Of a DNA stretch of 64,000 nt, positions 461 through 63,848 are shown one piece after another (the first letter of the stretch is position 1; the number at the start of each line of letters is the position of its first letter). This DNA comes from Branchiostoma floridae (taxonomy: Eukaryota; Chordata; Leptocardii; Amphioxiformes; Branchiostomatidae), in NCBI RefSeq assembly GCF_000003815.2, contig NC_049981.1:9279828-9343827 (forward strand), in the 5' to 3' direction. Both the position numbers and the translations under genes were made by a program. Below the pieces are notes generated by a model. It saw only the letters and a program-made list of their open reading frames with translations, did no database searches and was not told where the DNA came from.

Positions 461-481
461 GTTTAGTTTAGTTTAGTTTAG

Positions 482-510
<29 letters not shown>
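461..510. repeat. (GTTTA)10 microsatellite inside the retropepsin frame
   Basis: Ten perfect GTTTA units. They lie exactly between the two halves of the protease coding sequence, and the reverse strand reads TAA immediately next to them. Confidence 0.97.
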
Positions 511-512
<2 letters not shown>

Positions 513-1619: not shown

Positions 1620-2690
1620 TGGTAGAGAGCTGGCCGAAACGTATTATCCCTAATACAGCTCAATGCAGAGGCCCTGGCCTTACTTTAACAGAGTCTAGGT
1701 GGAACTTCTGGCTCCTACCCCTAAGACTATACTGAACTGTCCCTACCGAGCAAAACAGAACTATCGTTATAACAGATGATGGTAATCACGCACAAGATGA
1801 ACACAGCAAGCACGGCTTATATATGTAACAACAAAGAACCGTACCGTTATGCTACAATTTCTGGCCCAGCACAATGTATTCTACCGTATACCATTGCCTA
1901 AACCAGGTTGGGATACCATCTAATAACCACCCCTTATACTAGCTGAACGGTCCCCAACAGAACAGTGATATCTAAACCAGATGTAGTGAGATACTGTCTC
2001 CTGTCAGTGAGGTACAAAAACACACAGGATACAGGAATTTGGGTCAAAGGGAATTATCAAAACAAACTGTGTACAGATAGAGACTCCATCCTAGACGATC
2101 CTGAGTTCAATCTTACATAAGTATGCCAAACTAGAAATAATGACAAAAACCACCAACTGTTCGCAGCTCTTGTAGTTCTCCCTTTCTCTCACAGTTCTAC
2201 ATGTAAGTAACTGTTCAAGTTCAGTTTATACAGATCAGGGCCGGCCGTCCTCTTGCCTGGAACCCCCGTGCTTGGAACCCGACTCCTCTTGGTCTCGTAC
2301 GCTGAACGCTGCCTCCCGCAGACAGCCGCTAGAAAGGTTCCACTGGAAAGTTCTCCGGACTCAGTCTCTCTGCCTCTACACCACGGTCGATCCCCAAATC
2401 TCTACCTCTATCTTCTGAGATTTTGATCCCACCGTCTCCAGGGCCACCTGAGTCCTTCCGAATTCTTCCTGTCCTGCTTCTGTTGGCCACGACAACCGGA
2501 GACTGTCCACGTGCGAAACAGATCCGCAGATCCAACCTTGCACCCAAGCTCTGCACCAAAGCAAACGCAAGGTCCTGCTCCAATCTTCCAGTTTCCACGC
2601 TCAGCTCCAAATCCTCCCTGGTGCTCCGCTGAATCAAGCCGACATACGCCAAATGATAGAAGGTTCGTTCAGAAGTAAGAGTTCAGCACG
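1620..2690 (-). other. 5' untranslated/LTR region of the retroelement (unresolved)
   Basis: About 1.07 kb upstream of the gag start. It holds no recognisable host gene. A 107-codon open frame at 2329-2652 (minus) is GC-rich and has no motif I recognise. An LTR probably lies here, but its partner would be outside the window, so limits and primer-binding site cannot be fixed. Confidence 0.35.
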
Positions 2691-4207: not shown

Positions 4208-7200
4208 GAATTATTTGCTCCATAGCAGAAAAGCAGATGTGGCAGTCCATGGTGTCCGCAGGAAAGAAGAAGGGGTCAGCATCGCATATGGTGGTGGTCA
4301 GGATCTCTGCACTCCACACTACCAGACCATCGCTGCTGACCCGAACAGGTACGTCCTTTTGTAGGCCTCGATGGGTGACATCAGCACTGGGAAGTAAATT
4401 AATTCATGAGCTTCTACTTCCCATTTATTTCCATTTAAAAATGCATACTTTTTATGGGCGCGTTCCATATGGAACTACAAAAAAGTATATTGATATTATT
4501 CATTCTATTTTGGACACATTTAAAAAATGGCAACAACATCTATACACCATGTCTCTTTTTATGGTTATCACAAACCGCAGTTAAGTCTCGCGTCGCAAGA
4601 GGCACTGTCTCGCTGCTAGCATACAAAACCCAGCACTACTCTACCCCAGCGTGGGGATGCCGAAAAACTCATTTCCAGTTATAAAAAAGCTAGCTTGATT
4701 AAACCTCGCTTATAGCAGCCCGCCCAACATCCACCGTTCTCTGCGGGGAGGGGCCAGTTACAGCCCTGGACAGCAGCGTTTGTGTTACAGACTACAAACT
4801 TGAGAGTTGGCTTAAGCCCCGGTCACAAAGCGCGTACGATTCCTTGCGATGGACTATTCCGCATATCGTACGATGAGCGCAGTACATCGCAACAAAATCG
4901 TAAGCATCGCAAGCCATCGTAACGCATCGGATGGTGTTCAAAATTTTTCCAGCGTCGCACGATGTTTCACTTGTGTCTCTTCTGTATAGCCGTCTGACCG
5001 CTTTTGTGCTTCTTTAACCAACAAACATCATGGTGGACGTAGCTGTTAAATACCTTCCTATAATATCTTTAACTGTAAAAATAAATTAAAAAAGACCATG
5101 ACAACAATATTACAAGCAAAAGTTCAAATCAAGCGTGAGTACTGGTATGGTTATCTCGGCCTGCTTGCCGGCTCTACGTGTCAGGCTCTTTCGAAGATCG
5201 TATCATGATATGCTATCAACAAAAAGATGCCATCATACAAAAATCAAATGATAAGCATTATATCATATATATTTCCGACTCATAGAGCCTGCCTTTATGT
5301 TCGAGTTGTCCCCATGGTTATTACGATTATGGTAAACTGACCCAAGAGTGCCAAGACCGACGAGAGCTAAGATTTGATCTAATTATAAACTCACGTGCAT
5401 GAAGCGATCAAACTAGTGTCTGCATCACCTGTGCGTGACGCGCTGTTCTCTGGTTGCGACTGTGGCAGTTGCGACTGATATATTTCCCCTTTTCGTCAAT
5501 ATCGACAATATCAGGTAAAACTGAAACCATCACAACATACTAAAAAATCATAAATCTATAACCTCATCAGTAGACAAAAATTGCCGTAATGAACTCTGCT
5601 ATGGGGGCAAATAAAACCTTACGACGATAGCGAAATTTTGAACATGTTCAAAATCCATTTCAGCTCTATTTTTCGCCATACGACGCTCCCCGATTTACTA
5701 TGATTCACTGCGATTGACACAGGCACGCTCTTATGACCTCATCGTACGATCCACTACGCGCTTTGTGACCACGGCTTTATATACTTAAACCATTGCTTCC
5801 GATTTTCTTCCGACGTACGTCGCACTGCGATTATCCTGCGCATCGGAAGGAATCGCAAGGAATCGTACGCGCTTTGTGACCGGGGCTTTAGCTAAAACTG
5901 TATTTCTCACCACTATAGATAAACTGCCCGCGAAAGTAAGGCCCCGGTCACAAGAATCGTACGATTGACTGCGATGGAGGTTTTATGCGCGGTATAAGCC
6001 AGTACGTCGTAAGTCGGGCAAGAATCGGAAGCAATGATTTAAATATATAAAACCGTGGTCACAAGGATCGTAGCGCATCGTACGATGAGGTCATAAGAGC
6101 GTATCTGCGTCAATCGCAGGTAAATCATAGTAAATCGGGGAGCATCCTATGACGAAAATAGAGCTGAAATGGATTTTGAATATGTTCAAAGTTTCTCCAT
6201 CGTCGTACGATTTTTTATTGCCCCCATAGCAGACTTCATTATGGCCATTTTTGTTGTACTGATGATGTTAAAGATTCTTAAATTTTTAGCATGCGGTCAT
6301 GGTTTCAGTTTTCCCTGATATTGTCGATGTTGTCGAAAAAGGAAATCTATCAGTCACAATTGTTCACAATAGAACTAGAGAACAACGCGCCCGTAGAAGA
6401 GCCTGCCTTCAAGGTAATATTTTCCACGTGGCAGATTCAGTATCACGCACAGGTGATGCATACATTAGTTTGATGGCTACATGCACGTGAGTTCATAATT
6501 AGATCAGATCTCATCTCTCGCCGTTCTCGGTCAGTTTACCATAATCGTAACCATGGGGACAACTCGAACAGAAAGGCAGGTTTATGATATAATGCTTATG
6601 ATATGATTTTTGTCTGATGGCATTTTTCTTGATAGCATATCATCACAAAAAAGCAAAACATGATTTTCGAAAAAGCCTGACTCGTAGGGCCGGTACGAAG
6701 GCCGAGATAACCATGCTAGTACTTGTGCTTGATTTGAACCTTTGTTTGTAAGACTCGTGCTATTATGGTTTCTTTTTATTTGTTTTTTTTACAGTGAAAG
6801 TCATTATAGAAAGGTATTCAACAGCTAGGTCCACATTTGGTTGTTAAAGAAGCACAAAAACGGTCAGGCGGCTATTCAGAAGAGATACAAGTGAAAAATC
6901 GTACGACGCTTGGAAAATTTTGAACATCATCCGATGCTCTGCGATGGCTGATTTTGCTTACGATTTAGCTGCGATTTCCTGCAATCATCGTGCGATATGC
7001 GGAATATGCCATCGCAATGACGTCGTACGATTCTTGTGACCGGGGCTTAAGTAAGTTGTGAAGTAAACTTTAATCCAACCATTGTCTTTCTGGGCCGGCA
7101 ATCTTCTAAAGTATACGCTCGTAATACACGAATGAGACCATAAAAAAATATAAGGTCATGTTGATTTGGTTATAAAGGACTACTTCGGGAAACCCAAAAC

Positions 7201-8194
7201 TGATGCGAGCGCGAGATAAAGTTGCCTTCATTATGAAATTTAAGTGGTTAGGAAGGTTGAAAAATGATTCAACACACAGGGAACGGTATACGTATACTGG
7301 ACAATAGATTCTTCATTTTTGTTCTTCTATATCTTCTTCTTTGACCTTGGCGCCCTATAACGTTGATGTACGTTTTTCTTTTATATATTTTCCGGCATGT
7401 ATTTTTTCATTTTGCAGCTGCTTTGTACGATCTACATTATGATTGAAAGCCTTTTTTCTTCACAGACTGGCCGAAAATTGACGCGCACGCGGATGTCATC
7501 TTTATAATAAAATCGTGGCCTGATGTGCATTTTGTTATATAATGGACTGGCCTCTAGCAGGTCTGTTACGAATGACTTGCAAGATTAATACTGTTACTGC
7601 AACTGTAGAAATTTTTTAACATACTTCTGATGAAGCAAATCAATTCTTTTGAACCAGCCATGCCTATAAGATTTACTAGTACGTACTTCCTCTTTAGGGT
7701 GAATGATGGTGTCCAAATTCTGCTGCCCAGAACGCGGAAAGTCTTGATGCCACCAAAGTACTTTGGGTTCCATTTCAACCGACCGTCCTGCCATTTCTAG
7801 AGGAAATATCATTTAGTTGTGCAAACAACAATAAAATAGAAACACTTGCAAATTTTGAAAGTGCAAAATTATGTAACTAGAATGTGTCCACAACACATGA
7901 TGTCAAACTGTATCAACTCACGAAATCGACGACTACAGATGCGACCAGCTGTTCCTTCTTCTCATCCTGAAAGAACATTTACAGCATGTGGTAAGATACA
8001 ATTTTGCCACCACAAGGTGCCACCGCATCTGTTAATTGCAAAACAGGAATCTATCACGTGTATACAGTTACTAGTACTTACCAAGTCGATGATCTGCTCT
8101 ACAGATCCATTGAAAAAGATGGTAATGTTCTCGGGCGCTAAACCGGCATTTTGGGTGTCTAGCACCTCTTCTTGTAGCCTTTGCTTATGATCGA
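4208..8194 (-). CDS. Cys-loop (nicotinic-type) ligand-binding domain, four exons, C-terminus outside window
   Basis: Exons 8082-8194 (N-terminal helix, PENITIFFNGSVEQIIDL), 7922-7966 (DEKKEQLVASVVVDF), 7687-7796 (KWQDGRLKWNPKYFGG to RIWTPSFTLKR) and 4208-4386 (NADV to VSSDGLVVW, then ICDADPFFFPADTMDC). The Cys-loop has exactly 13 residues between its cysteines and an FPxD motif. The 45- and 110-bp exon sizes equal exons 3 and 4 of vertebrate nicotinic receptor genes. The loop A aromatic (Tyr of LLYN) is replaced (LKRN), so classical acetylcholine binding is doubtful. Two MITEs (4815-7047) fill the last intron. No M1-M4 exon is visible to the left, where a SINE and a retroelement lie. Confidence 0.87.
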
Positions 8195-8309
8195 CTATTA
8201 AAGAAGGGGTAAAGTGTATGCTCATTATTTTGATAATGGCAAGTATCATTGACAGCCTAACGACAACATGTCAACTATTACGTTTGCAAAGAGGGTTATG
8301 TTTTCGGGG

Positions 8310-8386
<77 letters not shown>

Positions 8387-11300
8387 TGCGTGTGCTTGCG
8401 AACTCGATAAGTCGTGGGAAGTCGTGGGATGATATTTTCAAGTCTTTACAATATGGTAGGGTTTGGGGCACCTTAGCGTTTTTTCATGGTACTGCAGCGG
8501 AACAGGGTTTTGACTTTATGTGGTACATGTAGATTTATCTTTTACTTGGTAAGCAGTGTCATAACTTTGGAGCAACTAGCCGTTTTTCTTAACTGCAACT
8601 GCTCAACTGCTTTTTGTTGCAGACTTTGAAAGGAAATAACGCAGGAAGCTTGAGGGTTTGATGGTTGGTCATGACTTTTGGCATGTAAATAGAGACGATA
8701 GACATTGTTAAATGCTAATGATGCAGGAATTTATAAAAACTATACAAATGTGCACAATAAATGACCAAATACTGCAATTCCATAGTGATAAATAAGTTAA
8801 ACTTGGATTTCATAATTGCGGAATCAGAAAGTTTAGCAAATCACAGCCTCATTAACATTTTTTTAATGGAAAACTGCAATTGCCTTCTTTGCCCTAAAGT
8901 TATTACTTTGAACAGATATATTATTTCGATAGCTTACATAACTAACATAAATGGTGACTTAATTTGCATAATCAATGAGAAACATTTATAATATGTCAGT
9001 CGTAAAGGTCTAACATCATTCGGCGAACGTTATTGCTTGTTCAGAACTGTTTTTAAAGACTGTTTGAAACTCACCTGAACAACTGGGCTTGTCATATTGC
9101 CAAACGCCTCCTTTGGTGCACCTCACCTCCTTGTTGTAACCTGTGGTCAGGGTGTACCCCTCGTTGCAAGTGAAAGTGACCCTTTCTCCTACGTAGTAGA
9201 ACCTCTTCTTAGGGCTTCTCTTGCCGTAGTTTGGAGGACCTCTGTCCCAACATACGTCCTCATCTGTACGTGTGTGATGAGCACATGGCTTGGTAGGTGA
9301 GTGGATGTACCATTGATAATTTTGGTACAGATCTACTTAAACTACTATAGCAAATTAATAACATAAAGGGGTTATATATACATATGTCACAGGGGAGATT
9401 GGAATCCGGGGGAATTCAGAATTCCCCTAGGAGAGATTTGAATTCCCATCTCCACTAGGGAAATTGGAATTCCAATCTCCCCTAGGCGATTCTGGAATTC
9501 TCCTAGGAGACATTGGAATTCCAATTATCCCTAGTGGAGATTGGAATTCTACCAGGACAATCTTCGATTCTACAGCTACCAGGAGAAATCCAGATTAGAT
9601 GAAATTGTTTCGGAACGTAGACTGAATGATTTCACAACTTCTAATCATAGGAGGTAAGGTTACGTACATTACAAACTATTCCAGGTGAATCACTTCATAT
9701 TTTAGACAGTACATTTTGGCATGCCACTTGCTACATTGAAACTACATTTTATGTTGTCCATTTCTGCAAATTTGGAACTGACTTTGGAGAGGAAAATTAG
9801 CTCTTGCATGTATGTATGGAGTCACTAACCTGTAATGGTCGTATGCAAATATACATGTAGATACATATTTCGCACATACAATAGTAATAGTACATGACTA
9901 ATATTTTCAAGCATAACATGGCGAAAAGTTCATTAACCCCATCATTCGTCTCCCTCGTAATTTCAAAACGGCTTACGATCACCAGATTTATAGGGGATTA
10001 TGCACTCGTATGGTTTTATCTTTTCTGCAGTTTTGGCATCGTTAGGGACTTCCGTTAAAGGCATTTAATAAAACGTTGACTTGTAAGGTTGTCTTCTTGA
10101 TATTCAAGTCTGCGAACTCTTCTGTTGCCAATGACGACGAAAATATGACGTCAGAAAATGACGTCATATGTCGGCCATCTTGGATCGGCAATCTTGAATT
10201 TTCTAAAATATTTTTTTTCTCTTTATAACCCCCAAACCCAGTAGAAGTGGACTAAAACGTTCATATTAATGTGTTTTGTAAAGACATAAAAGATGTTTGA
10301 CAGAATTTGAGTGAAAATAAATTGATATTACCGTCGCTAAAGACATGGCCCACCGCTCCTGGATTTTCCCAAAAGACGCCCCAATGCAACGTCATCAAGT
10401 TAACATAGATTATGAATACTTTATCATAAATATAACATGAAATTACATAGGATGCCAATGATAAAGGAAAAGTTTTCTCTAGCAAGAAAACCTTGAAACT
10501 TCATTATTTAAACCGAAATGAGTATACTTGCTAAGATATGCCTGTCAAAAATCCGTTGCCATGGCAACACTAAAAATAACAAACTCACCGTTTTACCGTA
10601 GAATTGTTACCAAAAATAGTCTAGGAGAAGTCATTAAATTTGGTAGCCCTAGCACATCTAATCTTAGCCAAAAAGCACATGTGGTAATTTTCAGATACGG
10701 TAAATGATCGACCAAATCAAAACAAGAAATTGAACTCACAGAATAATAAGAATCGTTCTATACTAAATTATTATCTTTGAGATTAAAAGTGTGTATTTTT
10801 TTGACTGCTCACTGCATGTAATGACGCCACATTCCTCTTGGCTACCGTCTTCGAGTAAACAGAATGGCCGCTCGAGACCGGTAGGGTTGCGGCAGTAGTT
10901 GTTATCCAGGTTAGCCCAGTGGTACTCTGCCATGTAGTTATCAGTTGACCACTCCACACAATCTGCCCCAGATGCAGTCTTATGCCAATGTCCACGATAG
11001 TTTATTCCATTGCCATGGTAGCAAACTAAGGGTGACAATGAATCATAGATTAAGTGCTGATCATATAAACCCCTAAATATATTGCGGCAATAGAATGTAA
11101 CCAGAAAACCAGGCACGAATTCCAGAAAAGTAATTTGTTACTGGAAAGGCATCATTTTCGAGAAAATGCAGATTGTTTTCCGTGTACCTTTTGTCAAGCT
11201 ACTCGCACACAATACCACACCATTAAGCCACATGACATCTACTTGGTTTTTGGGCCAGGTCAAAAGCATAATTTTATTATACCATTAGGCTCGCCATATG

Positions 11301-14300
11301 GTATTGTGTGCGAGTATAAAAAGAAAATTACCGACCAACTTTTGCTTTCGCAAGCCTGTAATTGTTTTGATGATTTATACAATTAATGCACTGATGTAGG
11401 TCTAAGCTCTGATTGGTTTGTGACAGAAGAAGAAGAAATATAAAGAACACACTAGCAAAAACAATATGTTTTCGCATTGTGGAAACATAAAAAATCATTT
11501 TCTGTTGGTCGAAATGTATAAGGAAATGAACAATTGTATAATTCAAACGAAATAGCCATCTTAAATGAGATTCCAGTGATAGTAATTCTTTTTACTTTCG
11601 TCTTCCCTCTTAGCTGGTTCAGGGTTCCAACAACCGTGTTGTGATGATGGAAACAATACACACGGAGGAAACAAGTCCTTCATCCGGTCATCAAGCATGT
11701 TGAGCACTTCCTCGCACCACGTACGGCACGGTACAAGTTGTGAACCCCTAGGAAAAATAAGTAGGTTTACTTCGAGATGATGAAAGTGAAACAGTTAAAT
11801 ATAATCAGACAGATGTTGCACGTTGATATCATTGGTGTTAGAAAGATATATAAACTTTAAGATATATAAATTTCAGAAACCATTAACCAAAAGTTTCGTT
11901 AAACGCAAAGTTCTTTTCCACTCACGTGCAAAGTTTGTCGTTTGCATCTGGAGTCGGAGAGCAGTGAGTGTTCTCCACAGAGACATTGCATTGTGGGAAA
12001 ATGACAGTTGCTACGAATTCTCTTAACTCTGGATGATAGTTTTTTAGGATGCCGTTAGAACTTTTGAGCAGTTCCACGACAGAAATCGAAGAATTGAACA
12101 CCTCCTCAAACGTTTCCTGCCCAAGCTGGTTTGGTAACATGGTAGCTCTATTGCTGAGTTGAAAGCCATCAGGAATCGTCAGGCATACTGAAAATTAGAA
12201 CAAATCATTGCGACATGTTTAATACGACAAACAAATTGGTTGAACTAGTCACGATTTGATTTTGATGACATGCCAATGAGTAGACCAGTACTTTTGTACT
12301 CTGATTCTCTAGCATCTTGCTCTATATCTTTCCTGCTGTATGGACGAATCAATTAGAATAAGAACTGCAAGAGAGGTGTTTGAAGATCGCATTAAAGACG
12401 AAAACCCCAAGTTGCAAAACCCATGTTAAATTAAAATTATGGGATTTTCATATTTGTGACATATGTCACTTGGGTTGAGGGTATAAGACACATGTCACAA
12501 ATATGGAAATCCCATAATTTCCTCTAAAGCGCCAAGAAAGTTTATTTAGTAGATGTGTAGATAAGGTCCTCTGCTGCATAAATCACCTACATCACATTTG
12601 TTGGCAATCTTCTCCAAATCAAATTACAATGTCCACAAGTAAAACTATGAAAGCGCTCTCCTGGCATAGAAGGCGTTTGTAGACCTTATATGCAAGTTTG
12701 ATCTTACATGTAAACACTGGGAGTTAAAAAGAACATTTTACAAAATGTACAGAAACTCTGAAAATAAACTTTGAATAACATGATAACACCGGCATGGCGT
12801 AAATAATATAGACTTGAGCAAATTTCCTGTATTCCCAATGTGATTTATCTATATGGAAAATAACACTAAGCAACTATAAGTTACATGTACACGAATTTAG
12901 ATGTACTGTACTAACCACAATCTTTCTCGTCACTTCCGTCCGAACAGTCCGTCTGCCCGTCACAACGCCGCCATGATAAGATACTCTTGGATCCGTCACC
13001 GCAACTGAAGAACCCGACCCTAGCACTTCGGTCTTTTCAAGCAGATTATGGCCAATTATTTATAACATAACTTTACATAAACATGACAAATCAAAGACAC
13101 ATCAATACCATCAAACAGATACAACTAGACAGACAACATTTGCGAGCAAATGCAGCATATTTCACCCATTTTCCACTTCATGAAAAATTGATCTGTTCCA
13201 AAATTTCGCTTAACTAAAAGGCAACCCCAATGCGAGAATGCAGAGCGTGTAGAAATGGACCCTTCCAGTCTCAGATTCTATACGTCAGAATTAAGCAGTA
13301 CAATCAAAGTACTTCTGCTCAAAAATGGTAATCATCCAACTGATACCTCCATGAAATGTCTAGAGATTTTGTGATTTCATACAAATTGCTCACACATTTA
13401 CCTAATTTATGCATGGTGATGTTTATCATTAAGTAACGCACACATGTCAAAAGTATAAAATTCCCATCATGTTACTTTCCGTTTGCCTATTTAGTATCTG
13501 TTTATTTTTGACCTATCATAAATTACACGTGTTATATTTACTGAAGTCCAGTTATAGAAAACAATGGAATGATACAATTTCCTTATTAATTTTGCAAATT
13601 AGGTCCTCATTTACATAACATGTATATCATTATGAACATCTTTGCCTAATAAGCTTGGAAATCCATCGTACCTCTCTTTAGTTATCTTTTTTGGAATGTC
13701 TGGACAAAAACGCCCCTGCAGTTCCATTTTTCCTTTTTAAATTTACTCTTCGTTGAGTTTTTCAGTGTTTGGGAAGTTTTATTGCAAAAATATTATTATA
13801 ACGCTGGACGTGACAGCGATCTCGCACACCACAACCCCGCCCCACCCCCACCAGCACCCCCATCTCGCCCTTCCCGGGGCGAAATCACTAGTGATCTCGC
13901 CCCGCTACCTCGCCCCCTTTAGCGATTGGCCCCCTTAAAAAAACGGGTTTTCATGACATTTTAGTTGATTAGTACAAACCACAAACTGCAGTTTCAGAAT
14001 GATATAAGTACACTAGTTTGATACATAACCCTAACCATAGTATTAACAATAACTTGATTAAATGATATGGTATGGATATAGTTTAGACTTATAGTTAGGA
14101 CTTGTTTCGGACTGGAAGGGTTTGTTTGTTTGTTTGTTTAATTTGAAACACCTGGGTAGCCTATTCAGTGCTAACACACTGGTTTTCGATAGGGCCCAGT
14201 TTCACATATACATACATGGAAATAAAAAACAACTTACAGAGAGAAAAGTAGACATACACGTCGGAACATATAGGTTCAACTGAAACATGAAAGACAGATA

Positions 14301-17300: not shown

Positions 17301-20300
17301 TACTGGAGCACTAAGTCTCACAGGGACAGAACTGTCTGCCACGTGTGAGACGGCTCCAGCAGATGCAGCTTTGTTGTTCGATGCGCCGTGCACGCACGAA
17401 AGGTAACTTGCAGTGTCAAGTTCAAACACCAAGTGGGACAAAATTGAGAATTAGGCAGCCACCACTAACACATACACCAAATACCATCGCGCGTGCACCG
17501 TTCGTTCTGGAGATACAGCGCCGGAAACGTCCCATCCACACAGAAAAAAAGCTACCTGCCGTGTCAAGTTCAAACACAAGGAAGCCCCAAATGAAACGCG
17601 AACGACAGGCGACAGGCAACAACCACCAACCCATGTACCAAAAATCATCGCAATCGCACAATCCGTTCTGGAGATACATCGCCGGAAACGCCCCTTCCCC
17701 ACATTCCCACGCTAATGTATAGCGCTAAACTATATCTGCATTACATGCAGGTAATAAACTTTGAATTTAAACAGATAGACCCTAGATGTAAACATTATGA
17801 ACATGTAAACATTAGCATGGCGTAAATAATATATAAGTATACTGACTTGAGCAAATTTCCTGTATTCCCAATGTAATTAATCTATATGGAAAACAACACT
17901 AAGCAACTATAAGTTACATGTACACGAATTTAAATGTACTGTACTAACCACAATCTTTCTCGTCACTTCCGTCCGAACAGTCCGCCTGCCCGTCACAACG
18001 CCGCCATGATAAGATACTCTTGGATCCGTCACCACAACTGAAGAACCCGACCCCTGTGCGGTTAACACTTCGGTCTTTTTCAGTAGATTATGGCCAATTA
18101 TCTATTACAAAACTTTGCATAAACATGACAAATTAAAGACACATAACTGCCAACAGATACAACGAGACAGGCAACATTTGCGAGCAAATACAGCATATTT
18201 CACTCATTTTTCACTCCATGAAAAAATTGATCTGTTCCAAACTTTCATTCAACTAAAAGTCAACCCCAGAGCGAGAATACAGAGCGTGTAAAAGGGTCCC
18301 TTCCAGTTTACCCATGTAAAATAGAAAATAGATCAGTCCAAAAATATTTCTGCTCAAAAATGGAATTTTGAACTAGAGTTGGGCGACCTCATACCTCCAT
18401 GAAATATTGAGAGCTTTTATAGATTTCATGCAAGTGACTTACACATTTACTTAGTTTATGCGTGGAGATGTTCATCATTGACCAACGCACACATGTCAAA
18501 AGTATTTAATTCCCATTATGTATCATTAAGCGGTTTTACCATGTTTGCATAGATTATGCAGATCAGATTTCATTTGCATATTTGGTATCTGTTCCACCTA
18601 TCATAAATTACATGTGTTACATTTATTGAAGTCCAGTTATGGAAGAAATGGAATTATACGATTTCCTCATTGATTATGCAAATTAATTCCTTAATAGCAT
18701 AATATGTATATCATTATGACCATTTTTGCATAAGCTTCCTGCATGCCTCAATTTATGGAAATCCATTGTCCCTTTATTTGGAATGACTTATGACGAAAAC
18801 GCCCCTGTAGTTTCAAAGTTGTTTTTGTAAATTTACTGTTCGCTGAGTTTGTCGGTGTTTGGGAAGCAACGCTGAAGTTTTATAAGGCTGGATAATTGCA
18901 CAGACTGGCAAACATGAAATTATCATTCCAGCTATCGCAATTGCGTGAGCTGTTCTTCTCAAACCCGACCAGGAATTTTTGTGAAAATACACGTTGAACT
19001 AGAGAGGCAACATTTGCGAGAAAACACAGTACATTTCGCCCATCTCTCACCCCATACAAAGATGGACTGTTCCAGTGAATTTCAAAACACTTTGCAAAAA
19101 TGGACTTCACATATGATCACTCTGGTCGAAAATTGAATTAAAAAATTAACCCTCACGTGAGAATAGACCCTTTCAGTCGCATCCACGTGTAAAATAAACC
19201 ACTTCCACTCAAAAAAATGGAATTTTAAATCATTATCTTCACGTTGTAAACTATCTTGAAACCGCTAAAGTCTGTTGGTTCATTGAATTAACGCAATAAA
19301 AAATCTCCCAGTGACCTGTAAACTGGAGAAAAACACTTCCATTCAAAAATACTTTTGCAAATCATGCTATAGCCCATGAATGAATTTCAAAACAAGACTC
19401 CGCAGTGTAATAATGGCCTGTTGCAGCGCACACCATGTATTTTGAATCATCACCAGAGTCCAAAACTGAATTCTGAAAAATCCCCTTTCCGTCCAAAAAT
19501 GGACTCTCCAAGCAATACACAAAGTAAAGAAGAGCAGTTCAGCATCGGTGTTTTTCCTTAAAAGGGGCTTCTGCAAATCACCCTTTAGTTCAAAAATCAA
19601 TTTAAAAATTTGTCCCCTGTACAAGAATGGACTCTTCGACCCCAAGTAGAATGGTACAGTGGACGAGACCGAAGTCACTCACGCTAAGAAATGGTATTTT
19701 AATCATTACCCTTGTCCAAAACTGAGTTTAAAAAATCCCCATCCGTGCAAGAATGGACTCTCCCTCCATTCGAGCGATTGAGTCAGACTTAGGGGTGGGT
19801 ACCGGTACAGAAAATTCAGGTCCAGGTCCGGTTCAGGTCCAGAGGATCAGGTCCAGGTCCGGACCTGAACCTGGACCTGATTCACTATGACTCCTACCAA
19901 TGATCCATTTCACTACAAAGAAATCTGTTTGATGGAGTATTAGACTCACACTGGCGTTTTAAAATCCTACAATGCTAACTGCACCTGTACTATTGACTGT
20001 AAAACTTGGCAGAAATGACTATACACTCTACTCTACTTCGCTCTTGTTATTTTCTTCCACCTGCAAGCGCCAAAGCGTGTGAATGCCTGGTCAAATAATC
20101 TGTTCATTTTCTAATAGGTCCAACATCCGGTTCACCTAATTTTTTCAGGTCCGGTTTTTCTGGACCGGTCCAATAAGAAAAACCGATTTTGTACCGGTAC
20201 AGCGTACCGGTACCCAGCCCTAGTCAGACTAGCTCATTGGTTGCGGGATCCTTGTGGTTTACTAATTTAGGCTACTTGATTGTTTGTTCACTAATTCAAT

Positions 20301-21143
20301 AATTCAAAAAAAGCACACTTTTGGCTCCAGTACCCTGGTTTTACAACCATGTACTAGTTTGATTTTGGCACGAATCACTTCAAAATGATTTTGGATTTTC
20401 TGGTCATTTTTCAATGGCCAGAGGGGACAACGACCTTATGGTTGTGGACCCCCACCTGGAGACTGTTCTCTTGGCAACTCTATGGCAACCAATGATTTAG
20501 CCTGAATCAATATATCCTGAATAAGATAATTTTAAAGGCATGTATGAAAAATAAAATGAAAAATAACAACTTCTGGGGGTATTGGGCCCCTCTACCATTG
20601 TGCTAAATTTCAGGTCATTCGGTCCAGGAGAAGAAGAAAGAAGAAGAAGAAGAAGAAACATTACGAATACAATATATTTCACCATACCTGTGATACGGCT
20701 GAAATATAACAATACATTTCTCCCATACCTGTATGGGTGTGGTATGGGTGAAATCTAATGAAAGGCGATTCCTAATTGGCTGCATTTGATTAAAAAGAAA
20801 AAAAAACTAAATGTAGTAAAGGCCTACCAGAAAATACTTGTACTTCGCACAGGCTGAGTACTCTTGAGGACCCTGGAAGACGGATGCCCACATAGCGTCC
20901 CCGCATTCCTTGACATGAGACGACAATGGACGGCTGATCCACGTCGATTCGATGGTCACCACCACATTTGGGATTCATGCTGGTCTGGTTGGAATCGCCG
21001 ATGTGGATGTTGAAGGGGTTGAGGCGTTCCCGACAACAGTCCCGGCGGTTAAAGATGACCACACTGTAGATATTGGGGACAAAGTGAGGGCACTTGTTTT
21101 ATACACATTACATGTTCGGATGAACGTTCTTATGAAAAAACAC

Positions 21144-21202
<59 letters not shown>

Positions 21203-24200
21203 TTTTTTGTCGTATTCTTCCTCCCAGCAAAAAAAAGGTTTTCGGAAAAGGCTGAGCTGTGCACCAGGCGTAGCCACCTGGCTACTTCCTTCTTCGGCCA
21301 ATCAGAAAAAAGGAAAGCAGTGACATAATCTGAAACCAAGTAGATGTAGGCTGACACTAACACTATGATTGAGAAGGTTTTCTATGTATGTGTACTTCAG
21401 AATGTGGTTCTTACAAACGGCTATTTTACATCTTTTTCATAAAAATGCACATTCAAGAAGAAACTGATTTAAGTGATTTTGCAAGAACAAATGCGTATAT
21501 CTCATTGTGTGCCAAAACTGTTCACAAAATATGTTTATTATGTAATTCAATGAATAAATCCAATTACACAAATTGTTTTCATGAAAAAAAAAAACTTAAA
21601 AGTCTATTCATGCCCGGGAGGGGGGGAGGTTACACTCAAGGTTTGGACTGTCTTGTTTGTACAAAAGCCCATATCTTGAGCGGGTGCATTTTCGGACTGG
21701 TCTATTTTGCTAATTTACATAGGGTACACTGGATGGAATAGTCCATTCTTACACGGGATGACAATTTTTATCCATATCCATACGTTTTATCTATCACAAA
21801 AATGTTTATTATCGCGGCATTTACATTAATGACTCCAGATGCATAAATCATCTTAATGATCTGGGACTGGGGCCTCTGTTTTCTTTTTTCACTCGCACAC
21901 AATGCTTCTGGGCGAGCCAAATAGTATAGTATTCTGTGCCAGTAGCTTGAAACAAGGCTAAAGGAAAAACATTCTGCATTTTTGCAAAAATGTGGCCTTT
22001 CTAGTGTCATATTTACTACAAAGTAAGTCTTATATATGAAAAGCTATCTGTATATGCATATATATATACGTACCTATCAACCACATACGATTCACCGAGA
22101 TCCACCCACCAGGTTGGGTTATCCTCTCTCGGGGCATCGGTGGTGTGTGTACAGGAACCAGCGGACCAGTGGGTAGCGGTGTTCCCATCTACGGCAAGGC
22201 TGGCAGGCCCATTATATGCGGTGCTTGTTTGAAACGCTGGCTTTCCCAGGGCGACATTGACACCTACCACAGGCGAGAGGACTGTGATCAGTACTATCAT
22301 TTTTACAACGATGACCCAAGTTAAAGACAATTCTCTTTTCCTAACAGAGCTACTATTCCAGGGTATTGAGCAGCACACCAAATCACCTTAGTATCCGCCA
22401 GGCCTCGCTTACATGTAGGGTCACGATGATTTGACTTTCAAGTGAGACACAACCATGTTTGAATTAGGGGAGGGATATGGCATAATTTCCGTATCAAAAT
22501 TTTCTATCGGGCATCGTAGACGTATTTACGATTGTATTTTAATCCATACACAGTATGGATTGGCATCTGTTTTTGTCGCGTTTCTTCTTCTCCTCCTTTC
22601 ATTTTGGGGCCAGATGAACCGTTTGGTATTAAGGTTAAGTTACCAAATCACCACAGACTTTTTCAATTTTTTTTTATATAGGCCTTAAAATGATTTCATT
22701 TATTTATGCTTTGTTCATTCTTAGACTATAGACCAACAATGTATATATTGGCCCCCTGTGCCCTGGCATTACAACACAATGACCTGAAATTTTGTACTGA
22801 GGTGCAATGGACATCAACACCTTTTGCATGCACAACTTCAAAATGATTTATTTTCAGGGATTTGGGGTCATTTTAGACTAAAAATGTAAAGTATCGGCCC
22901 CTATACCCCCATATTAAAGCCAAATGACATGAAATTTGGTAGGACCGTGTATAGCACATGCGCCCACAGGACTTCATTCACATTTACTTTAAAATGATCA
23001 AATTTCATATTTTCCACAATTTTTGGACAAAAAATGTTTATTTTTGGCTCCTGTGTACGTGCATTGGTATTAAACCAAATGACCTGAAATTTGGCATAGA
23101 GATGCCTAGGTACATGCGCCTAAAGGACTTCATTTACACTTGTGGCATTTATCACTTAAATATCAAATTTATGGTTTGTGGCCATATTGAGACAAAAGTA
23201 AATTTTGGGCTCCTGTGCCTTAGTATGAATTTCGTATAGAGGAAGCTTTCTCACTAGAGATGGTAAATAGGGTAACATGGAAGAACCCATTTTGCACAGG
23301 GAGTCCATTCTTGTATTGAAAGGGTTTTTCAGTGAGATGGTTGTAGATGGTCTATTTCCGTAAAAGGTTGATATGGAACAAAAAGTCTTGATATCATCAT
23401 CACTAGCAGCATCTATTGTTATAATTAGTATTATTGTTTACATCAGTTTAATTTTTATTGTTATTTGGTCATTTCATTTATTGCTGTCTATTTATGTTTG
23501 CCTATGTTTGTGATGCATAAGTTTAATTTCATTTTATGTAAACACGCAGGGCTCCACTGAAAAGCAGTGCAAGAGCACTGAGTTTGGACCACCCTGGATA
23601 AAGATTACAGAAAAAATAAAATAAAATAAAAGTCCATTTTGCTTTGTGACAAATTGATTGAAATATGCTTTATTTGCTCTCGAGCAAAAGTCGCTCTTTC
23701 TTGTTTAATCTATCTTTTTAATACGAAGCTTTGACACGACAATAGTGCCATAGACATCTTACAGACCATTGGCCTAAAGGCCTCCGGGTGAGATGAATAC
23801 TTCCCATGAATCATACTTTAGAATACTTAAGAAAATTGCCTATTAAGAGACATACATTTTCCACAGGATACATCAACAGCTTTTAGTCTGTGAAAAAATA
23901 TTGCTTATGAAGACGAGTATATAACATGTGCATCCCTGCCTTTGGGATAATTTTAATCTAAAACCGCACAAAGAACAGAAAACCATTATTAAGTGACTTC
24001 AAATGTTCCTCAAATAGGTTTGAATATATGCTAGAGATGCCCATTGCTTCAATGTAAATGGGGCAGGTAGGTAGGCATAGGAAGCTACTGAACTAAAACC
24101 TACTCGAACAAAGAGTTTCACGCCTGCAGCTAGAAAAGAAGCACGTCACAAATACGACTATTGTCAACGTCCCCACTATACTGATCACAAGACAAACAAG

Positions 24201-24341
24201 ATTGTGAAAGGAAGCATATATTCATACAGACGTGATGACAGTAAACTGGTAGCGGCGATTTGTTATTACCTCCATGAAATATTAATGGGTCGATGCATTC
24301 ACGGATGTTATATTTTCAATAGCGTCTGTGTGTGTGTGTTT

Positions 24342-24384
<43 letters not shown>

Positions 24385-24396
24385 TGTGTTTGTGTG

Positions 24397-24451
<55 letters not shown>

Positions 24452-25700
24452 GTTTGTGTTTGTGTGTGTGTGTGTGTGTTTGTGTGTTTGTGTGAACTCA
24501 ACTCAAGAACGGCTGGATGGATTGGTCTCATACGTGGTGTGTTAGTAGACCTGTCAACATGAGGAAAGCTGAAAATGATTAGATTTTGTGTCCCCTAGCG
24601 GCTTCCCCTGGTACTGCAGCGTAACTTCCTGTTTTGCTATCCTGTGTTCTGAACAAGCTATGGACACAATTTTTGCCGTGTCAAAATGTCGTATTATAAA
24701 TAATAAAGTGTACCTCAAAATGTCGTATCATAAAGTGTTCCTTAAACGAGCGAAAATAAGTGCACGACATTATGATTCGTGAATATATCGCAACGATGGC
24801 GTGCTAAGGCTTCCTGCAACGCCGTATATCGTAGCAACATTGGACTAAATAAGTATATTGCAGATACGTTATAACATTACATAATATGTGATAACGTAAC
24901 AGAAGAACGTAACATTAATGCACCATACGGTACATTAAGAATTCTGTGTGTCTAACGTGAATGCACCATAGGACACGGTGGACACGGCAACCGGTTCAGA
25001 ACCGAACATCGCGGGGTACCAAAATACCGTTGAGAACCAGACAGCGCTAATTTATACAATTTCAAGACACTATAATATTTGCTTTGTTTGCTTCTCGAAA
25101 GTGTTTTAGCGAGCTGCGGTAGCAGGCTCCGAATCGGCTGCTGTGGTTAATGTGACATCATCGAAGTAAATCAGCATTTAACAAGTACAAATACTCTAAT
25201 ACCGGTACTCCTGTAATGCATCTTGAAAATAGAGGAAAGTCGGCATTTGTATTCTTTCATGTAAACGTCTTCACTTCGCGCACTTTTACATGGATAGACC
25301 GAAAATCGTCAAAGAAGACACAGCACTGTTACTCTGACATATCTAGGAATTGTTACATTTGTTCAGAAGGTTGCATTTTAGGAAGCATTTATCTGTGTGT
25401 CCCTATCGCAAATCGTACACGTATTTGTTCAAGGCACACTCTGATATGATATTTTAACACAAAATTTTAAAAGTTGTAGAAAGAGGCGCGTGGGCATTGC
25501 TCATAAGGTCCCTTCCGTTCAAGCTGAACCAAAGTTTTTATGCTATAATTGAATCATCGTAGACGTATTTACATGTATTTAAGTACGCTTTTTAAATTGA
25601 AATTTTGACAAGGGGATGATGCTATAGAGAAGGTATAATCCTTACCTTTGACCGCCTGCAGGCAGCAGATGATCCAAACAGCCCAAAGTTGGCCCCTCAT
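4208..25700 (-). CDS. Mosaic secreted/membrane receptor: lectin, LDLa, Fz, kringle, sushi modules plus Cys-loop channel ligand-binding domain
   Basis: Fifteen exons can be joined, all with AG/GT borders: 25646-25700, 22074-22281, 20828-21063, 17949-18053, 16613-16818, 16010-16190, 12916-13032, 11926-12187, 11596-11747, 10813-11025, 9075-9263, 8082-8194, 7922-7966, 7687-7796, 4208-4386. Cumulative length is 2371 bp (790 codons), and every junction phase agrees. Order: signal peptide, F-type lectin, LDLa, C-type lectin, LDLa, Frizzled CRD, kringle, sushi, nicotinic-type ligand-binding domain. The last visible exon ends in phase 1 just after the Cys-loop, so the membrane part must lie further left or is lost. 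By family, the ectodomain would be extracellular and bind glycans or proteins. A role as ligand-gated channel subunit is inference. The main doubt is whether the sushi-to-channel junction is a real transcript or two adjacent genes. Confidence 0.75.
4815..5887. mobile_element. PIF/Harbinger-like MITE, copy 1
   Basis: Terminal inverted repeats AGCCCCGGTCACAA and TTGTGACCGGGGCT are flanked by a TTA target duplication (4812-4814 and 5888-5890). TWA duplications are the mark of PIF/Harbinger elements. There is no transposase frame. A second, nested copy of the terminal motif (near 5767-5776) lies inside the right end. Confidence 0.85.
5940..7047. mobile_element. PIF/Harbinger-like MITE, copy 2 (opposite orientation)
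   Basis: It has the same terminal repeats as copy 1, here flanked by TAA (5937-5939 and 7048-7050). Its interior is the reverse complement of copy 1: for example the poly-pyrimidine and CTTCTTTAACCA segment near 5010 matches TGGTTGTTAAAGAAG near 6838. Different TSDs show that two separate insertions occurred 52 bp apart. Confidence 0.85.
8311..8395. repeat. (GT)n microsatellite within a dispersed repeat
   Basis: About 40 GT units with few interruptions at the end. The flank at about 8405-8505 (GATGATATTT through GGTACTGCAGCGG) recurs next to the GT tract at 24326. Confidence 0.95.
9075..9263 (-). CDS. Sushi/CCP domain exon
   Basis: A phase 1-1 exon of 189 bp encoding C-W-D-R-G-PPNYG, then YYVGERVTFTCNEGYTL, VRC, GVWQYDKPSC. 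This is the four-cysteine complement-control fold with the VTFTCNEGY and GxW marks. The donor leaves one G, which with TC from exon 8082-8194 makes Val and keeps the reading frame into the channel domain. Confidence 0.92.
9386..9570. repeat. Short palindromic minisatellite (GGAGATTGGAATTCC type)
   Basis: About seven alternating forward and reverse units of GGAGATTGGAATTC / GAATTCCAATCTCC, separated by CTAGG or CTAGTG. It lies in the intron between the kringle and sushi exons. Confidence 0.85.
10813..11025 (-). CDS. Kringle domain exon
   Basis: One phase 1-1 exon of 213 bp. All six kringle cysteines are present: CYHGNGINYRG, then TASGADCVEW, a WANLDNNYCRNP segment, RPFC, EECGVITC. The NYCRNP and PFC marks are diagnostic. 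It lies directly after the Frizzled CRD. Confidence 0.93.
11135..11320. repeat. Dispersed repeat with CTCGCACACAATACCA inverted ends
   Basis: TACTCGCACACAATACCA near 11199 and its inverse TGGTATTGTGTGCGAGTA near 11299. A related copy, inverted, is at about 21885-22012 beside the F-lectin exon (GAAAGGCCACATTTTTGC form). Confidence 0.6.
11596..12187 (-). CDS. Frizzled cysteine-rich domain, two exons
   Basis: Exon 11926-12187 gives CLTIPDGF, then TMLPNQLGQETFEEVF, with the PN(x)6-8 helix typical of Frizzled CRDs, and VIFPQCNV. Exon 11596-11747 gives VPCRTWCEEVLNMLDD, LFPPC and HGCWNPEP. About nine cysteines with CRD spacing are seen, one fewer than usual near the N-terminus. The donor at the end is a weak GTAAAA. 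Known CRDs bind Wnt lipids or related ligands. CRD followed by kringle is the same order as in ROR-type receptors. Confidence 0.88.
12438..12517. repeat. 31-bp imperfect hairpin
   Basis: TTATGGGATTTTCATATTTG at 12438 is matched in inverse at 12487-12517, with a 17-bp loop. Intronic; probably a small MITE remnant. Confidence 0.7.
12777..13745. repeat. Segmental duplication carrying an LDLa exon (copy 1)
   Basis: It matches 17811-18860 in the same orientation, including intron sequence on both sides of the LDLa exon (for example AGCAACTATAAGTTACATGT on one side and TTTGCGAGCAAATACAGC-like sequence on the other). The duplication is about 1 kb and the copies are 5 kb apart. Confidence 0.85.
12916..13032 (-). 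CDS. LDL-receptor class A module (downstream copy, altered 5' splice border)
   Basis: It is nearly identical to the exon at 17949-18053 and ends with the same donor. The original acceptor is lost through a small deletion: the nearest AG (13020-13021) would give a 104-bp exon and a frameshift. The next AG upstream (13033-13034) gives a 117-bp exon that is open and keeps phase 1-1, adding four residues. It may be used this way, be skipped, or be a dead exon. Confidence 0.6.
13807..13950. repeat. GATCTCGCCCC family element, copy 1
   Basis: It begins GTGACAGCGATCTCGC and continues with C-tracts alternating with GGCGAAATCACTAGTGATC and TAGCGATTGGCCCC. Same family as 15180-15312 and 63849-64000. 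Confidence 0.8.
14117..14640 (-). mobile_element. LINE 3' end (CR1/L2-like reverse transcriptase C-terminus)
   Basis: The minus-strand frame 14369-14623 encodes the usual end of a non-LTR reverse transcriptase: YKCTNGLAPTYLSS, then TFAYRGAKHFNSLPAYIK and a final SFKSALKDL. A 3' UTR and a (CAAA)n tail follow, ending near 14117. It is 5'-truncated and carries no endonuclease. Clade assignment is by motif only. Confidence 0.85.
15031..15130. other. Assembly gap (100 N)
   Basis: Exactly 100 undetermined bases, so the true length is unknown. Confidence 1.
15180..15312. repeat. GATCTCGCCCC family element, copy 2 (inverted)
   Basis: Reverse orientation: G-tracts, GGCGAAATCACTAC, and AGCGATCTCG ending in CTGTGAC. 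It lies 50 bp from the assembly gap, which fits a sequence that is hard to read through. Confidence 0.8.
15659..15799. mobile_element. 141-bp hAT-like MITE with perfect 28-bp TIRs
   Basis: GGTTACTGTCGCATTTGTCT opens the left 28-bp repeat (15659-15686) and its exact inverse is at 15772-15799. The 8-bp target duplication GATTTTAC stands at 15651-15658 and 15800-15807. Eight-base TSDs are typical of hAT transposons. Confidence 0.92.
16010..16818 (-). CDS. C-type lectin domain, two exons
   Basis: Exons 16613-16818 and 16010-16190 join in phase 0. The domain shows FYKVFRTRKDHTSAQQTC at the start, GGHLAIV, IWIGLSGGD, then WMWTDG, the EPN tripeptide, the WDDDFC counterpart of WND, and FICQ at the end. 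EPN with the WND-like Asp residues is the calcium and mannose-type sugar site in this family, so carbohydrate binding is plausible. No transmembrane segment is attached. Confidence 0.92.
17380..17705. repeat. Dimeric ~150-bp tandem repeat
   Basis: Two diverged units share TGTCAAGTTCAAACAC at their starts (near 17415 and 17560) and GTTCTGGAGATACA plus GCCGGAAACG at their ends (near 17503 and 17663). It is intronic, and its open frames are not supported as genes. Confidence 0.7.
17811..18860. repeat. Segmental duplication carrying an LDLa exon (copy 2)
   Basis: Partner of 12777-13745. It retains the intact LDLa acceptor. The block ends in a 400-bp dispersed repeat (CATACCTCCATGAAATAT) also found alone at 56705-57110. 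Confidence 0.85.
17949..18053 (-). CDS. LDL-receptor class A module (upstream copy)
   Basis: A symmetric phase 1-1 exon of 105 bp with acceptor CACAG and donor GTTAGT. It encodes FFSCGDGSKSIL, RRCDGQTDC-type spacing and the calcium-binding SDGSDEKDC end (here Ala/Gly variants of the same codons). Only four of the six usual cysteines are present: the first and third, which normally form one disulfide, are both absent. Confidence 0.82.
19020..19780. repeat. Degenerate short-unit repeat array
   Basis: Diverged units built around AAAATGGACT(C/G)T and TTCAAAA(C/A)A recur many times with changing spacing. No exon signals. It lies in the intron between the F-lectin and LDLa exons. Confidence 0.5.
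19790..20222. mobile_element. hAT-like MITE with TAGGGGTGGGTACCGGTAC ends
   Basis: Ends TAGGGGTGGGTACCGGTACA and, inverted, GTACCGGTACCCAGCCCTA. The 8-bp target duplication GTCAGACT is at 19782-19789 and 20223-20230. Subterminal AGGTCCAGGTCCGG repeats follow. A second, end-truncated copy lies at 50222-50627. Confidence 0.92.
20330..20660. repeat. Dispersed ~180-bp repeat (GACCTGAAATTTGGTAT family), diverged
   Basis: It contains the family marks TACCCTGGTTTTACAACCA, TTCAAAATGATTTTGGATTT and TAAATTTCAGGTCATT. The same monomer builds the arms of 39160-42797. Confidence 0.6.
20828..22281 (-). CDS. F-type lectin (fucolectin/FTP) domain, two exons
   Basis: Exons 22074-22281 and 20828-21063 join AG to T (Ser) in the middle of the domain. 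Visible family marks are VNVALGKPAFQTS at the start, AVDGNTATHWSAGSC, WWVDLGESYVVD, then IFNRRDCCRERL, with the RxDx4R fucose-binding pattern, and CEVQVF at the end. The conserved His that helps hold fucose is probably the one in THTT, at a slightly longer spacing than the usual motif. F-type lectins bind L-fucose with calcium structural support; sugar specificity here is inferred. Confidence 0.88.
21147..21199. repeat. (CA)n microsatellite
   Basis: About 26 CA units directly upstream (in gene sense) of the second F-lectin exon. Confidence 0.95.
22735..23235. repeat. Three tandem ~165-bp units of the GACCTGAAATTTGG family
   Basis: Three head-to-tail units each carry a GGCCCCTGTGCC-like segment, AATGACCTGAAATTT and CTTCAAAATGAT-like marks. 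Intronic, upstream of the lectin exons. Confidence 0.75.
23547..23632 (+). mobile_element. LINE 3' tail fragment
   Basis: GGGCTCCACTGAAAAGCAGT through CCACCCTGGATAAAG, followed by an (AAATA)n tail. This is the usual end of CR1/L2-like LINEs; no coding part remains. Confidence 0.6.
24265..24625. repeat. Dispersed repeat with embedded interrupted (GT)n
   Basis: TTACCTCCATGAAATATTAATG, then a 168-bp GT tract with regular TTTGT interruptions (24326-24494), then GGCTGGATGGATTGG and a TGTCCCCTAGCGGCTTCCCC to GGTACTGCAGCG end. Related copies without or with the GT tract are near 8300-8505 and 37038-37245. Confidence 0.6.
25646..25700 (-). CDS. Exon 1: start codon and signal peptide of the mosaic gene
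   Basis: ATG at 25698-25700 opens MRGQLWAVWIICCLQAV, a short hydrophobic leader with a basic N-terminus, followed by the donor GTAAGG after AAA G (phase 1). Phase 1 matches the acceptor of the first lectin exon (22281). A short alternative leader could start inside the lectin exon (Met codon near 22300), so the first-exon choice is likely but not certain. Confidence 0.65.
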
Positions 25701-52722: not shown

Positions 52723-52788
52723 GTTGCACTTAAATGACTATACTGAGCCACAACTTGCGGTGACCATTGAAACAGATACAGTACAGAA

Positions 52789-60628: not shown

Positions 60629-60695
60629 GTTGCGCTTAAATCGCATGCGACTATACTAGCTACAAGCTGCGGTGACCACTGAAACAGATAAAGAA

Positions 60696-63800: not shown

Positions 63801-63848
63801 TGTCTCGCCACAACCATTAGACAACTCATTGAAAAAAAAAAGAGATCC

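What the first reader, a model, noticed from the sequence alone, without database searches (positions are those of the whole stretch)
4208..25700. A pentameric-channel ligand-binding domain with a lectin/LDLa/Frizzled/kringle/sushi N-terminal extension
Fifteen exons with canonical AG/GT borders and one unbroken chain of splice phases join an F-type lectin, two LDLa, a C-type lectin, a Frizzled CRD, a kringle and a sushi domain to a complete nicotinic-type ligand-binding domain including the 13-residue Cys-loop. Vertebrate nicotinic subunits normally start at the N-terminal helix right after the signal peptide. I know of no named receptor with this order, but cannot search. Such a protein could couple glycan, lipid or microbial pattern recognition to ion flux, or be a secreted binding protein if the membrane part is lost.
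Basis: partly seen in the sequence, partly recalled or inferred. Interest (0 to 1): 0.92.

Follow-up and report, generated by a model that had tools for sequence, protein, structure and literature searches.

The report
Lancelet ion channels with lectin heads
This lancelet gene joins sugar-binding-type and other recognition modules to the receptor part of a nerve-type ion channel, and it belongs to a large lancelet gene family for which I found no published description, which suggests channels that can read surfaces or partners directly.

Summary
The finding holds and leads to something larger. On the minus strand (25700-4208), 15 exons join in one open frame of 784 codons: signal peptide, F5/8 (lectin-like) domain, LDLa, C-type lectin, LDLa, Frizzled-like CRD, kringle, sushi, then four exons of a nicotinic-type ligand-binding domain. 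Two corrections: the binding domain stops just after the Cys-loop, so it is not complete, and the second LDLa exon fits the phase only with a weak acceptor. The channel part (M1-M4) is not in the window.

Three searches listed 146 distinct relatives, all named Branchiostoma. Of the first 123, 102 carry kringle, binding domain and membrane part. The sushi/binding-domain junction is gapless in 110 of 124 relatives that span it. In 92 aligned relatives the pore is cation-type and the acetylcholine contacts of loops A and B are gone. A 2022 paper says that extra N-terminal domains are not observed in any eukaryotic homologue. Most likely these are surface-recognition cation channels. That function is inferred; no transcript, ligand or current was seen.

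The parts
25646..25700 (-). Signal-peptide exon (MRGQLWAVWIICCLQAVK), splice phase out 1
   Evidence: weakly similar to the first residues of P0040 and P0017 (E 0.03-0.04)
22074..22263 (-). F5/8-type (F-type-lectin-like) domain, exon 1, phases 1 to 2
20828..21063 (-). F5/8-type domain, exon 2, phases 2 to 1; R-x-D-x4-R motif present
17949..18053 (-). LDLa exon 1, phases 1 to 1
16613..16818 (-). C-type lectin exon 1, phases 1 to 0
16010..16190 (-). C-type lectin exon 2, phases 0 to 1; EPN and WDD motifs
12916..13032 (-). LDLa exon 2, a copy of exon 1; phases 1 to 1 only with the weak acceptor at 13032
11926..12187 (-). Frizzled-like CRD, exon 1, phases 1 to 2
11596..11747 (-). Frizzled-like CRD, exon 2, phases 2 to 1
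10813..11025 (-). Kringle exon, phases 1 to 1
9075..9263 (-). Sushi exon, phases 1 to 1
8082..8194 (-). Ligand-binding domain, exon 1, phases 1 to 0
7922..7966 (-). Ligand-binding domain, exon 2 (45 nt), phase 0 to 0
7687..7796 (-). Ligand-binding domain, exon 3 (110 nt), phases 0 to 2; loop D and loop A region
4208..4386 (-). Ligand-binding domain, exon 4, Cys-loop C-x13-C; ends in a GT donor (phase 1), so the gene is expected to go on beyond the window's left edge
17800..18866 (-). One copy of a roughly 1.1-kb duplication (78% identical) that carries LDLa exon 1
12777..13776 (-). The other copy of that duplication, carrying LDLa exon 2
1..1643 (-). Retroelement frames (gag with SCAN-type domain and zinc knuckle) lying where the next intron or exons would be expected

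Best explanation
The window holds the first 15 exons of a gene in a lancelet family of pentameric ligand-gated channel subunits with a modular outer arm: a variable head (F5/8 lectin-like, C-type lectin or CUB), then LDLa, Frizzled-like CRD, kringle and sushi, then a nicotinic-type binding domain and, in the relatives and expected beyond this window, four membrane helices with a cation-type pore (this identity part: about 0.93). I think they work as surface-recognition cation channels: the head binds glycans, lipids or partner proteins on a nearby cell, microbe or matrix, and that binding, or a non-acetylcholine ligand that it brings to the subunit interface, opens a sodium/calcium-permeable pore. 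Shown here by sequence: architecture, splice phases, and in the relatives a cation-type pore, loss of acetylcholine contacts, many copies, changing heads. Inferred from families: glycan binding, pentamer, cation flux. Not shown: ligand, gating by the head, expression. The confidence is for identity and mechanism together.
Against: No transcript, ligand or current has been seen. The M1-M4 exons of this gene are outside the window, so it could be broken. The sugar motif of the F5/8 domain is not exact (29 instead of 26 residues between H and R). The loop D tryptophan of the acetylcholine site is kept in 92 of 92. The LDLa copies have four cysteines (sequence) where six are usual (recalled). The C-type lectin and second LDLa are joined in no gapless relative (CT2|LDL2 0 of 38, LDL1|CT1 4 of 15). 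The relatives are gene models; some contain plain mis-joins (reverse transcriptase in P0011, P0045, P0062, P0119; NACHT in P0008). Of the 123, 13 start at sushi or at the binding domain, perhaps truncated models, perhaps real short forms.
Confidence: 0.45

Rival explanations
1. Built-in clustering rather than sensing: the arm tethers and concentrates the channel at contacts. The module types are those of separate proteins that gather or modulate receptors elsewhere (LEV-10 and Neto: CUB + LDLa; LEV-9: sushi; MuSK of fish, amphibians and birds: Frizzled CRD + kringle; LRP4: LDLa). Here they would be fused in cis to the channel.
For: LEV-9/LEV-10/Neto roles (PMC9083331, passages); MuSK and LRP4 modules (PMC6966886, passages); 23 of 123 relatives read CUB-LDLa-Fz-kringle-sushi-channel.
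Against: Fz and kringle of one CUB-headed member (P0098) match Sizzled/Frizzled and plasminogen best in the PDB; MuSK or ROR are not among the 60 shown of 116 matches, so no common descent with MuSK is shown. Loss of loop A and loop B acetylcholine contacts in 92 of 92 and lectin heads (35 of 123) are not needed for synaptic clustering.
Confidence: 0.3
2. The window gene is a secreted or membrane-less recognition protein or a decaying copy: the channel part is lost and the binding domain is a relic.
For: No M1-M4 exon in the window and retroelement frames where the next part should be; a weak acceptor for the second LDLa exon. Three residues fewer between Cys-loop and exon end than in P0009, although that stretch varies in the family too.
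Against: No stop or frameshift in 15 exons; the last exon ends in a usable donor, and the relatives' residues at that junction fit the same phase; 115 of 123 relatives have the membrane part; LDLa exon copies 103/105 identical against 707/877 in flanks.
Confidence: 0.15
3. Two neighbouring genes, a lectin-kringle-sushi gene and a nicotinic-type gene, wrongly joined.
For: Some relatives' models start at the sushi or binding domain (8 SU-LBD-TM and 5 LBD-TM of 123).
Against: The sushi/binding-domain junction is gapless in 110 of 124 spanning relatives (the set comes from three named species and two hybrid assemblies); the phase chain is unbroken there.
Confidence: 0.04

Closest known systems
Nicotinic acetylcholine receptors (cationic Cys-loop receptors)
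   Same: Binding-domain fold and Cys-loop, loop D tryptophan, cation-type pore in relatives, best PDB matches
   Different: Recognition arm at the N terminus; loop A tyrosine, loop B tryptophan and loop C vicinal cysteines in 0 of 92 relatives; four extra near-invariant cysteines in the binding domain
Octopus and squid chemotactile receptors
   Different: No N-terminal recognition modules mentioned in the passages I saw; another lineage; sensory function of the lancelet genes not shown
DeCLIC and other prokaryotic channels with N-terminal domains
   Same: Extra domain before the binding domain of a pentameric channel, influencing gating in DeCLIC (PMC9897478, passages)
   Different: Bacterial; two beta-rich lobes, not lectin/LDLa/Fz/kringle/sushi; that paper says such a domain is not observed in any eukaryotic homologue
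Amphioxus adhesion GPCRs with kringle, C-type lectin, LDLa and CUB domains
   Same: Same animal group and same kinds of modules shuffled onto a membrane receptor (PMC2246102, passages)
   Different: Seven-helix receptors, not channels
Amphioxus nAChR expansion of nine genes, sister to vertebrate CHRNB2/4/5
   Same: Lancelet-specific nicotinic expansion (PMC6354393, passages); may overlap this family
   Different: The word 'kringle' does not occur in that text; identity with these genes not tested

Membership tests
Cys-loop (pentameric ligand-gated) channel | Neurotransmitter-gated channel ligand-binding domain | tested here: met
   Pfam PF02931 1.3e-27, profile 9-146 of 216, so the first two thirds; 167 PDB sequences matched, the 60 shown are nAChR chains or fusions
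Cys-loop (pentameric ligand-gated) channel | Cys-loop C-x13-C | tested here: met
   CDADPFFFPADTMDC in the window; both cysteines in 92 of 92 relatives
Cys-loop (pentameric ligand-gated) channel | Four membrane helices M1-M4 | tested here: inconclusive
   Not in the window; 115 of 123 relatives have the M1-M3 region and the model of P0004 has four membrane helices
Cys-loop (pentameric ligand-gated) channel | Pentamer, ligand-gated current | not testable with these tools
   Needs expression and recording
Nicotinic acetylcholine receptor in the strict sense (acetylcholine-gated) | Loop A tyrosine, loop B tryptophan | tested here: not met
   Window has K and M at the aligned places (the loop B place is uncertain because of a gap); in 92 relatives loop A is K64 E14 Q10 R3 S1 and loop B has no W; positions taken from the alignment
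Nicotinic acetylcholine receptor in the strict sense (acetylcholine-gated) | Vicinal cysteines of loop C (alpha type) | tested here: not met
   0 of 92 relatives; the window's own loop C lies outside
Nicotinic acetylcholine receptor in the strict sense (acetylcholine-gated) | Loop D tryptophan | tested here: met
   Window and 92 of 92
Nicotinic acetylcholine receptor in the strict sense (acetylcholine-gated) | Exons of 45 and 110 nt in the binding domain | tested here: inconclusive
   Window has exactly 45 and 110 nt, but the vertebrate sizes are recalled, not looked up
Lancelet mosaic channel family (defined here) | Order Fz-kringle-sushi-binding domain | tested here: met
   Own-HMM scan: F58-LDLA-CTLD-LDLA-FZ-KR-SU-LBD; tree puts the window in a 9-row set at 100/99
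Lancelet mosaic channel family (defined here) | Membrane part in the same protein | tested here: inconclusive
   Outside the window; a donor at 4208 suggests that the gene goes on
F-type lectin | Fucose motif H-x26-R-x-D-x4-R/K (recalled) | tested here: not met
   R-x-D-x4-R present, but 29 residues after H; of 11 F5/8-bearing relatives, P0005 and P0018 fit exactly
Frizzled cysteine-rich domain | Pfam Fz above cut-off | tested here: not met
   E 0.12, 13.4 against 32.1 bits; homologous to relatives with Pfam Fz
Octopus/squid chemotactile receptor | Activated by hydrophobic surface molecules in sensory cells | not testable with these tools
   No expression or physiology available

The most novel reading that the evidence does not exclude
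Lancelets have ionotropic pattern-recognition receptors: a large, changing set of pentameric channels in which interchangeable lectin or CUB heads on an LDLa-Frizzled-kringle-sushi stalk bind surface glycans or lipids and gate a cation pore directly, turning contact with a cell, microbe or matrix into current without a second messenger. As far as I know and searched, it would be a receptor class described in no animal, and the first eukaryotic Cys-loop channels shown to carry extra N-terminal domains.
Probability: 0.22. Interest if true: 0.93.

Novelty: new variant of a known kind. Interest (0 to 1): 0.78.

Why it matters
A paper on channel architecture states that an extra N-terminal domain, known from prokaryotic pentameric channels, is not observed in any eukaryotic homologue (PMC9897478, passage). 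On the level of gene models this family contradicts that: 102 of 123 relatives carry kringle, binding domain and membrane part in one chain, among them 22 distinct 90%-identity clusters named B. lanceolatum. If confirmed at protein level, it links recognition modules of innate immunity and of receptor-clustering proteins to a nicotinic pore in one chain. Three questions become testable: can lectin binding gate or tune a Cys-loop channel; can receptor clustering be built into the receptor itself; and do lancelets use channels where other animals use immune or chemosensory receptors.

Tried and rejected
Two-gene misjoin: rejected because relatives cross the junction without gaps. Channel exons inside the window: tblastn with the 72 relatives gave only the known exons plus simple-repeat noise at 43288-44475, 44005-44421 and 62556-63813. 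Descent of the Fz-kringle pair from MuSK or ROR: not supported by PDB sequence matches (60 of 116 seen). Relatives outside lancelets: none among the listed hits of three searches (120 of 140 found; 44), but 20 hits were not shown and candidates need shared five-letter words, so ordinary nAChRs of other animals did not appear among the listed hits either; absence elsewhere is not shown. The species of the window could not be fixed: the most similar tree row (P0004, belcheri) is 79% identical over 149 columns. The whole genome could not be searched. Folds of single modules were not tested apart: the structure-search rows covered residues 448-912 of the model only, and the model's mean pLDDT is 72. 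Papers: eight searches aimed at this family or its setting (two gave no paper) and two for comparators, all seen as listings; passages only of PMC4795631, PMC6354393, PMC4284660, PMC3927612, PMC2246102, PMC12373286, PMC9083331, PMC9897478, PMC6966886, PMC11526382, PMC10338036. None that I saw describes such a receptor. The library holds open-licence papers only.

Full report
WHAT IS THERE. The gene reads on the minus strand. Fifteen exons between 25700 and 4208 have AG/GT borders and join to 784 codons without a stop. Every module boundary is phase 1: signal peptide, F5/8 domain (two exons), LDLa, C-type lectin (two exons), LDLa, Frizzled-like CRD (two exons), kringle, sushi, binding domain. 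Symmetrical 1-1 modules behind a phase-1 signal-peptide intron are the usual mark of exon shuffling (recalled). Pfam finds all domains above cut-off except the Frizzled CRD. The binding domain matches nAChR chains in the PDB, best 9.7e-20 with neuronal beta-3.

CORRECTIONS. The binding domain is cut after the Cys-loop (profile 146 of 216); loop C and the membrane part are not in the window. The second LDLa exon keeps the phase only with the acceptor at 13032; in this copy 9 bases including the acceptor of the first copy are missing. The two LDLa exons lie on a 1.1-kb duplication that flanks the C-type lectin exons. The exon copies differ at 2 of 105 bases, the flanks at 170 of 877 (Fisher p = 1.6e-7), which points to constraint on the exon; because the flanks next to the exon are also more alike than the far ones, gene conversion is an alternative. 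Since LDLa, C-type lectin and second LDLa are all 1-1 units, the first LDLa could also be spliced straight to the Frizzled exon, which is the order in relatives with an F5/8 head. The CT2|LDL2 junction has no gapless support (0 of 38), LDL1|CT1 has 4 of 15, F2|LDL1 4 of 54, so this part is the least certain.

THE FAMILY. A search with the binding domain gave 72 proteins; one with kringle to M3 of P0012 found 140 at E <= 1e-5, of which 120 were listed; one with a seven-sequence profile of binding domain plus membrane part gave 44 at E <= 1e-10 out of 7996 scored. Together these list 146 distinct proteins, all named Branchiostoma; tagged by hand from their names: belcheri 53, floridae 33, lanceolatum 29, hybrid assemblies 17 (floridae x belcheri) and 14 (floridae x japonicum). 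Several annotations of one genome overlap and some models are fragments, so these are clusters at 90% identity, not gene counts. In the first 123, my own domain models give: binding domain 123, membrane part 115, kringle + binding domain 110, kringle + binding domain + membrane part 102 (belcheri 39, lanceolatum 22, floridae 15, hybrids 14 and 12), Fz-kringle with binding domain-membrane part 92, lectin head with binding domain-membrane part 35, CUB with binding domain-membrane part 34. The commonest order is CUB-LDLa-Fz-kringle-sushi-channel (23), then the same with a C-type lectin (19). These samples were chosen by similarity to the family and are not a census. The order of the window, F5/8-LDLa-CTLD-LDLa-Fz-kringle-sushi, occurs only in the window (1 of 124).

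TREE. On a tree of 92 relatives and the window (relatives with one unbroken binding domain-M3 match; 31 of 123 dropped), the window sits in a 9-row set with support 100/99; of the 8 others 5 carry an F5/8 head and 7 are named belcheri. The tree splits into 63 rows (window included; lectin and other heads) and 30 rows (mainly CUB heads). The head type, scored for the 61 of 93 rows that show one and counting combinations as their own types, needs at least 11 changes. Missing heads from poor gene models could raise or lower that number.

HOW IT MAY WORK. Recognition reading: nAChR-derived chemotactile receptors of octopus detect surface molecules without acetylcholine (passages of PMC11526382); here the recognition part would be a whole arm with lectin heads. 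Clustering reading: CUB/LDLa and sushi proteins gather acetylcholine receptors in C. elegans (PMC9083331, passages) and MuSK of fish, amphibians and birds has a Frizzled CRD followed by a kringle (PMC6966886, passages); the lancelet chain would be these helpers fused to the channel. I prefer recognition because of the lectin heads, head changes, many copies and loss of acetylcholine contacts, but the two can both be true.

NOVELTY. A 2022 paper states that an N-terminal domain is not observed in any eukaryotic pentameric channel (PMC9897478, passage). Eight paper searches aimed at this family, seen as listings, and passages of eleven papers showed no description of it. Similar shuffling onto amphioxus adhesion GPCRs is known (PMC2246102), and a nine-gene amphioxus nAChR expansion is known without mention of kringles (PMC6354393). 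The predicted proteins themselves are in public databases. I therefore call it a new variant of a known kind.

LIMITS. No transcript evidence; the only hint of transcription is that several source names carry 'isoform X' labels (for example P0065, P0087, P0098). Gene models contain errors. The search tool needs shared words and cut one list, so lineage restriction is provisional. The window's species is not identified.

Noticed in passing
52771-55836 and 60660-63797, + strand: Two long single-exon frames (1022 and 1046 aa) with leucine-rich repeats and a repetitive C-terminal half, in tandem; look like paralogous LRR receptors.
   Followed up: partly
1-1643, - strand: Retroelement frames with a SCAN-type gag domain (3.5e-8) and a CCHC zinc knuckle, downstream of the last binding-domain exon.
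   Followed up: partly
about 27720-32040, - strand: A multi-exon 2-oxoglutarate/Fe(II) oxygenase gene just upstream on the same strand; three joined exons match PF03171 at 1.9e-22.
   Followed up: partly
4800-7100: Several copies, seen by eye in both orientations, of a motif near 'GCCCCGGTCACAAG...CGTACGA' in the intron before the Cys-loop exon; may be small inverted-repeat transposons.
   Followed up: no
43044-44730: Minisatellite with long open frames in several frames; gave spurious tblastn matches.
   Followed up: no
22263-22300, - strand: The F5/8 exon could also start with its own ATG (MIVLITVLSPVV...), a possible alternative first exon.
   Followed up: no
P0118, P0122, P0123: Relatives with the CUB-LDLa-Fz unit doubled before kringle-sushi-channel, found in lanceolatum and in a hybrid assembly.
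   Followed up: no
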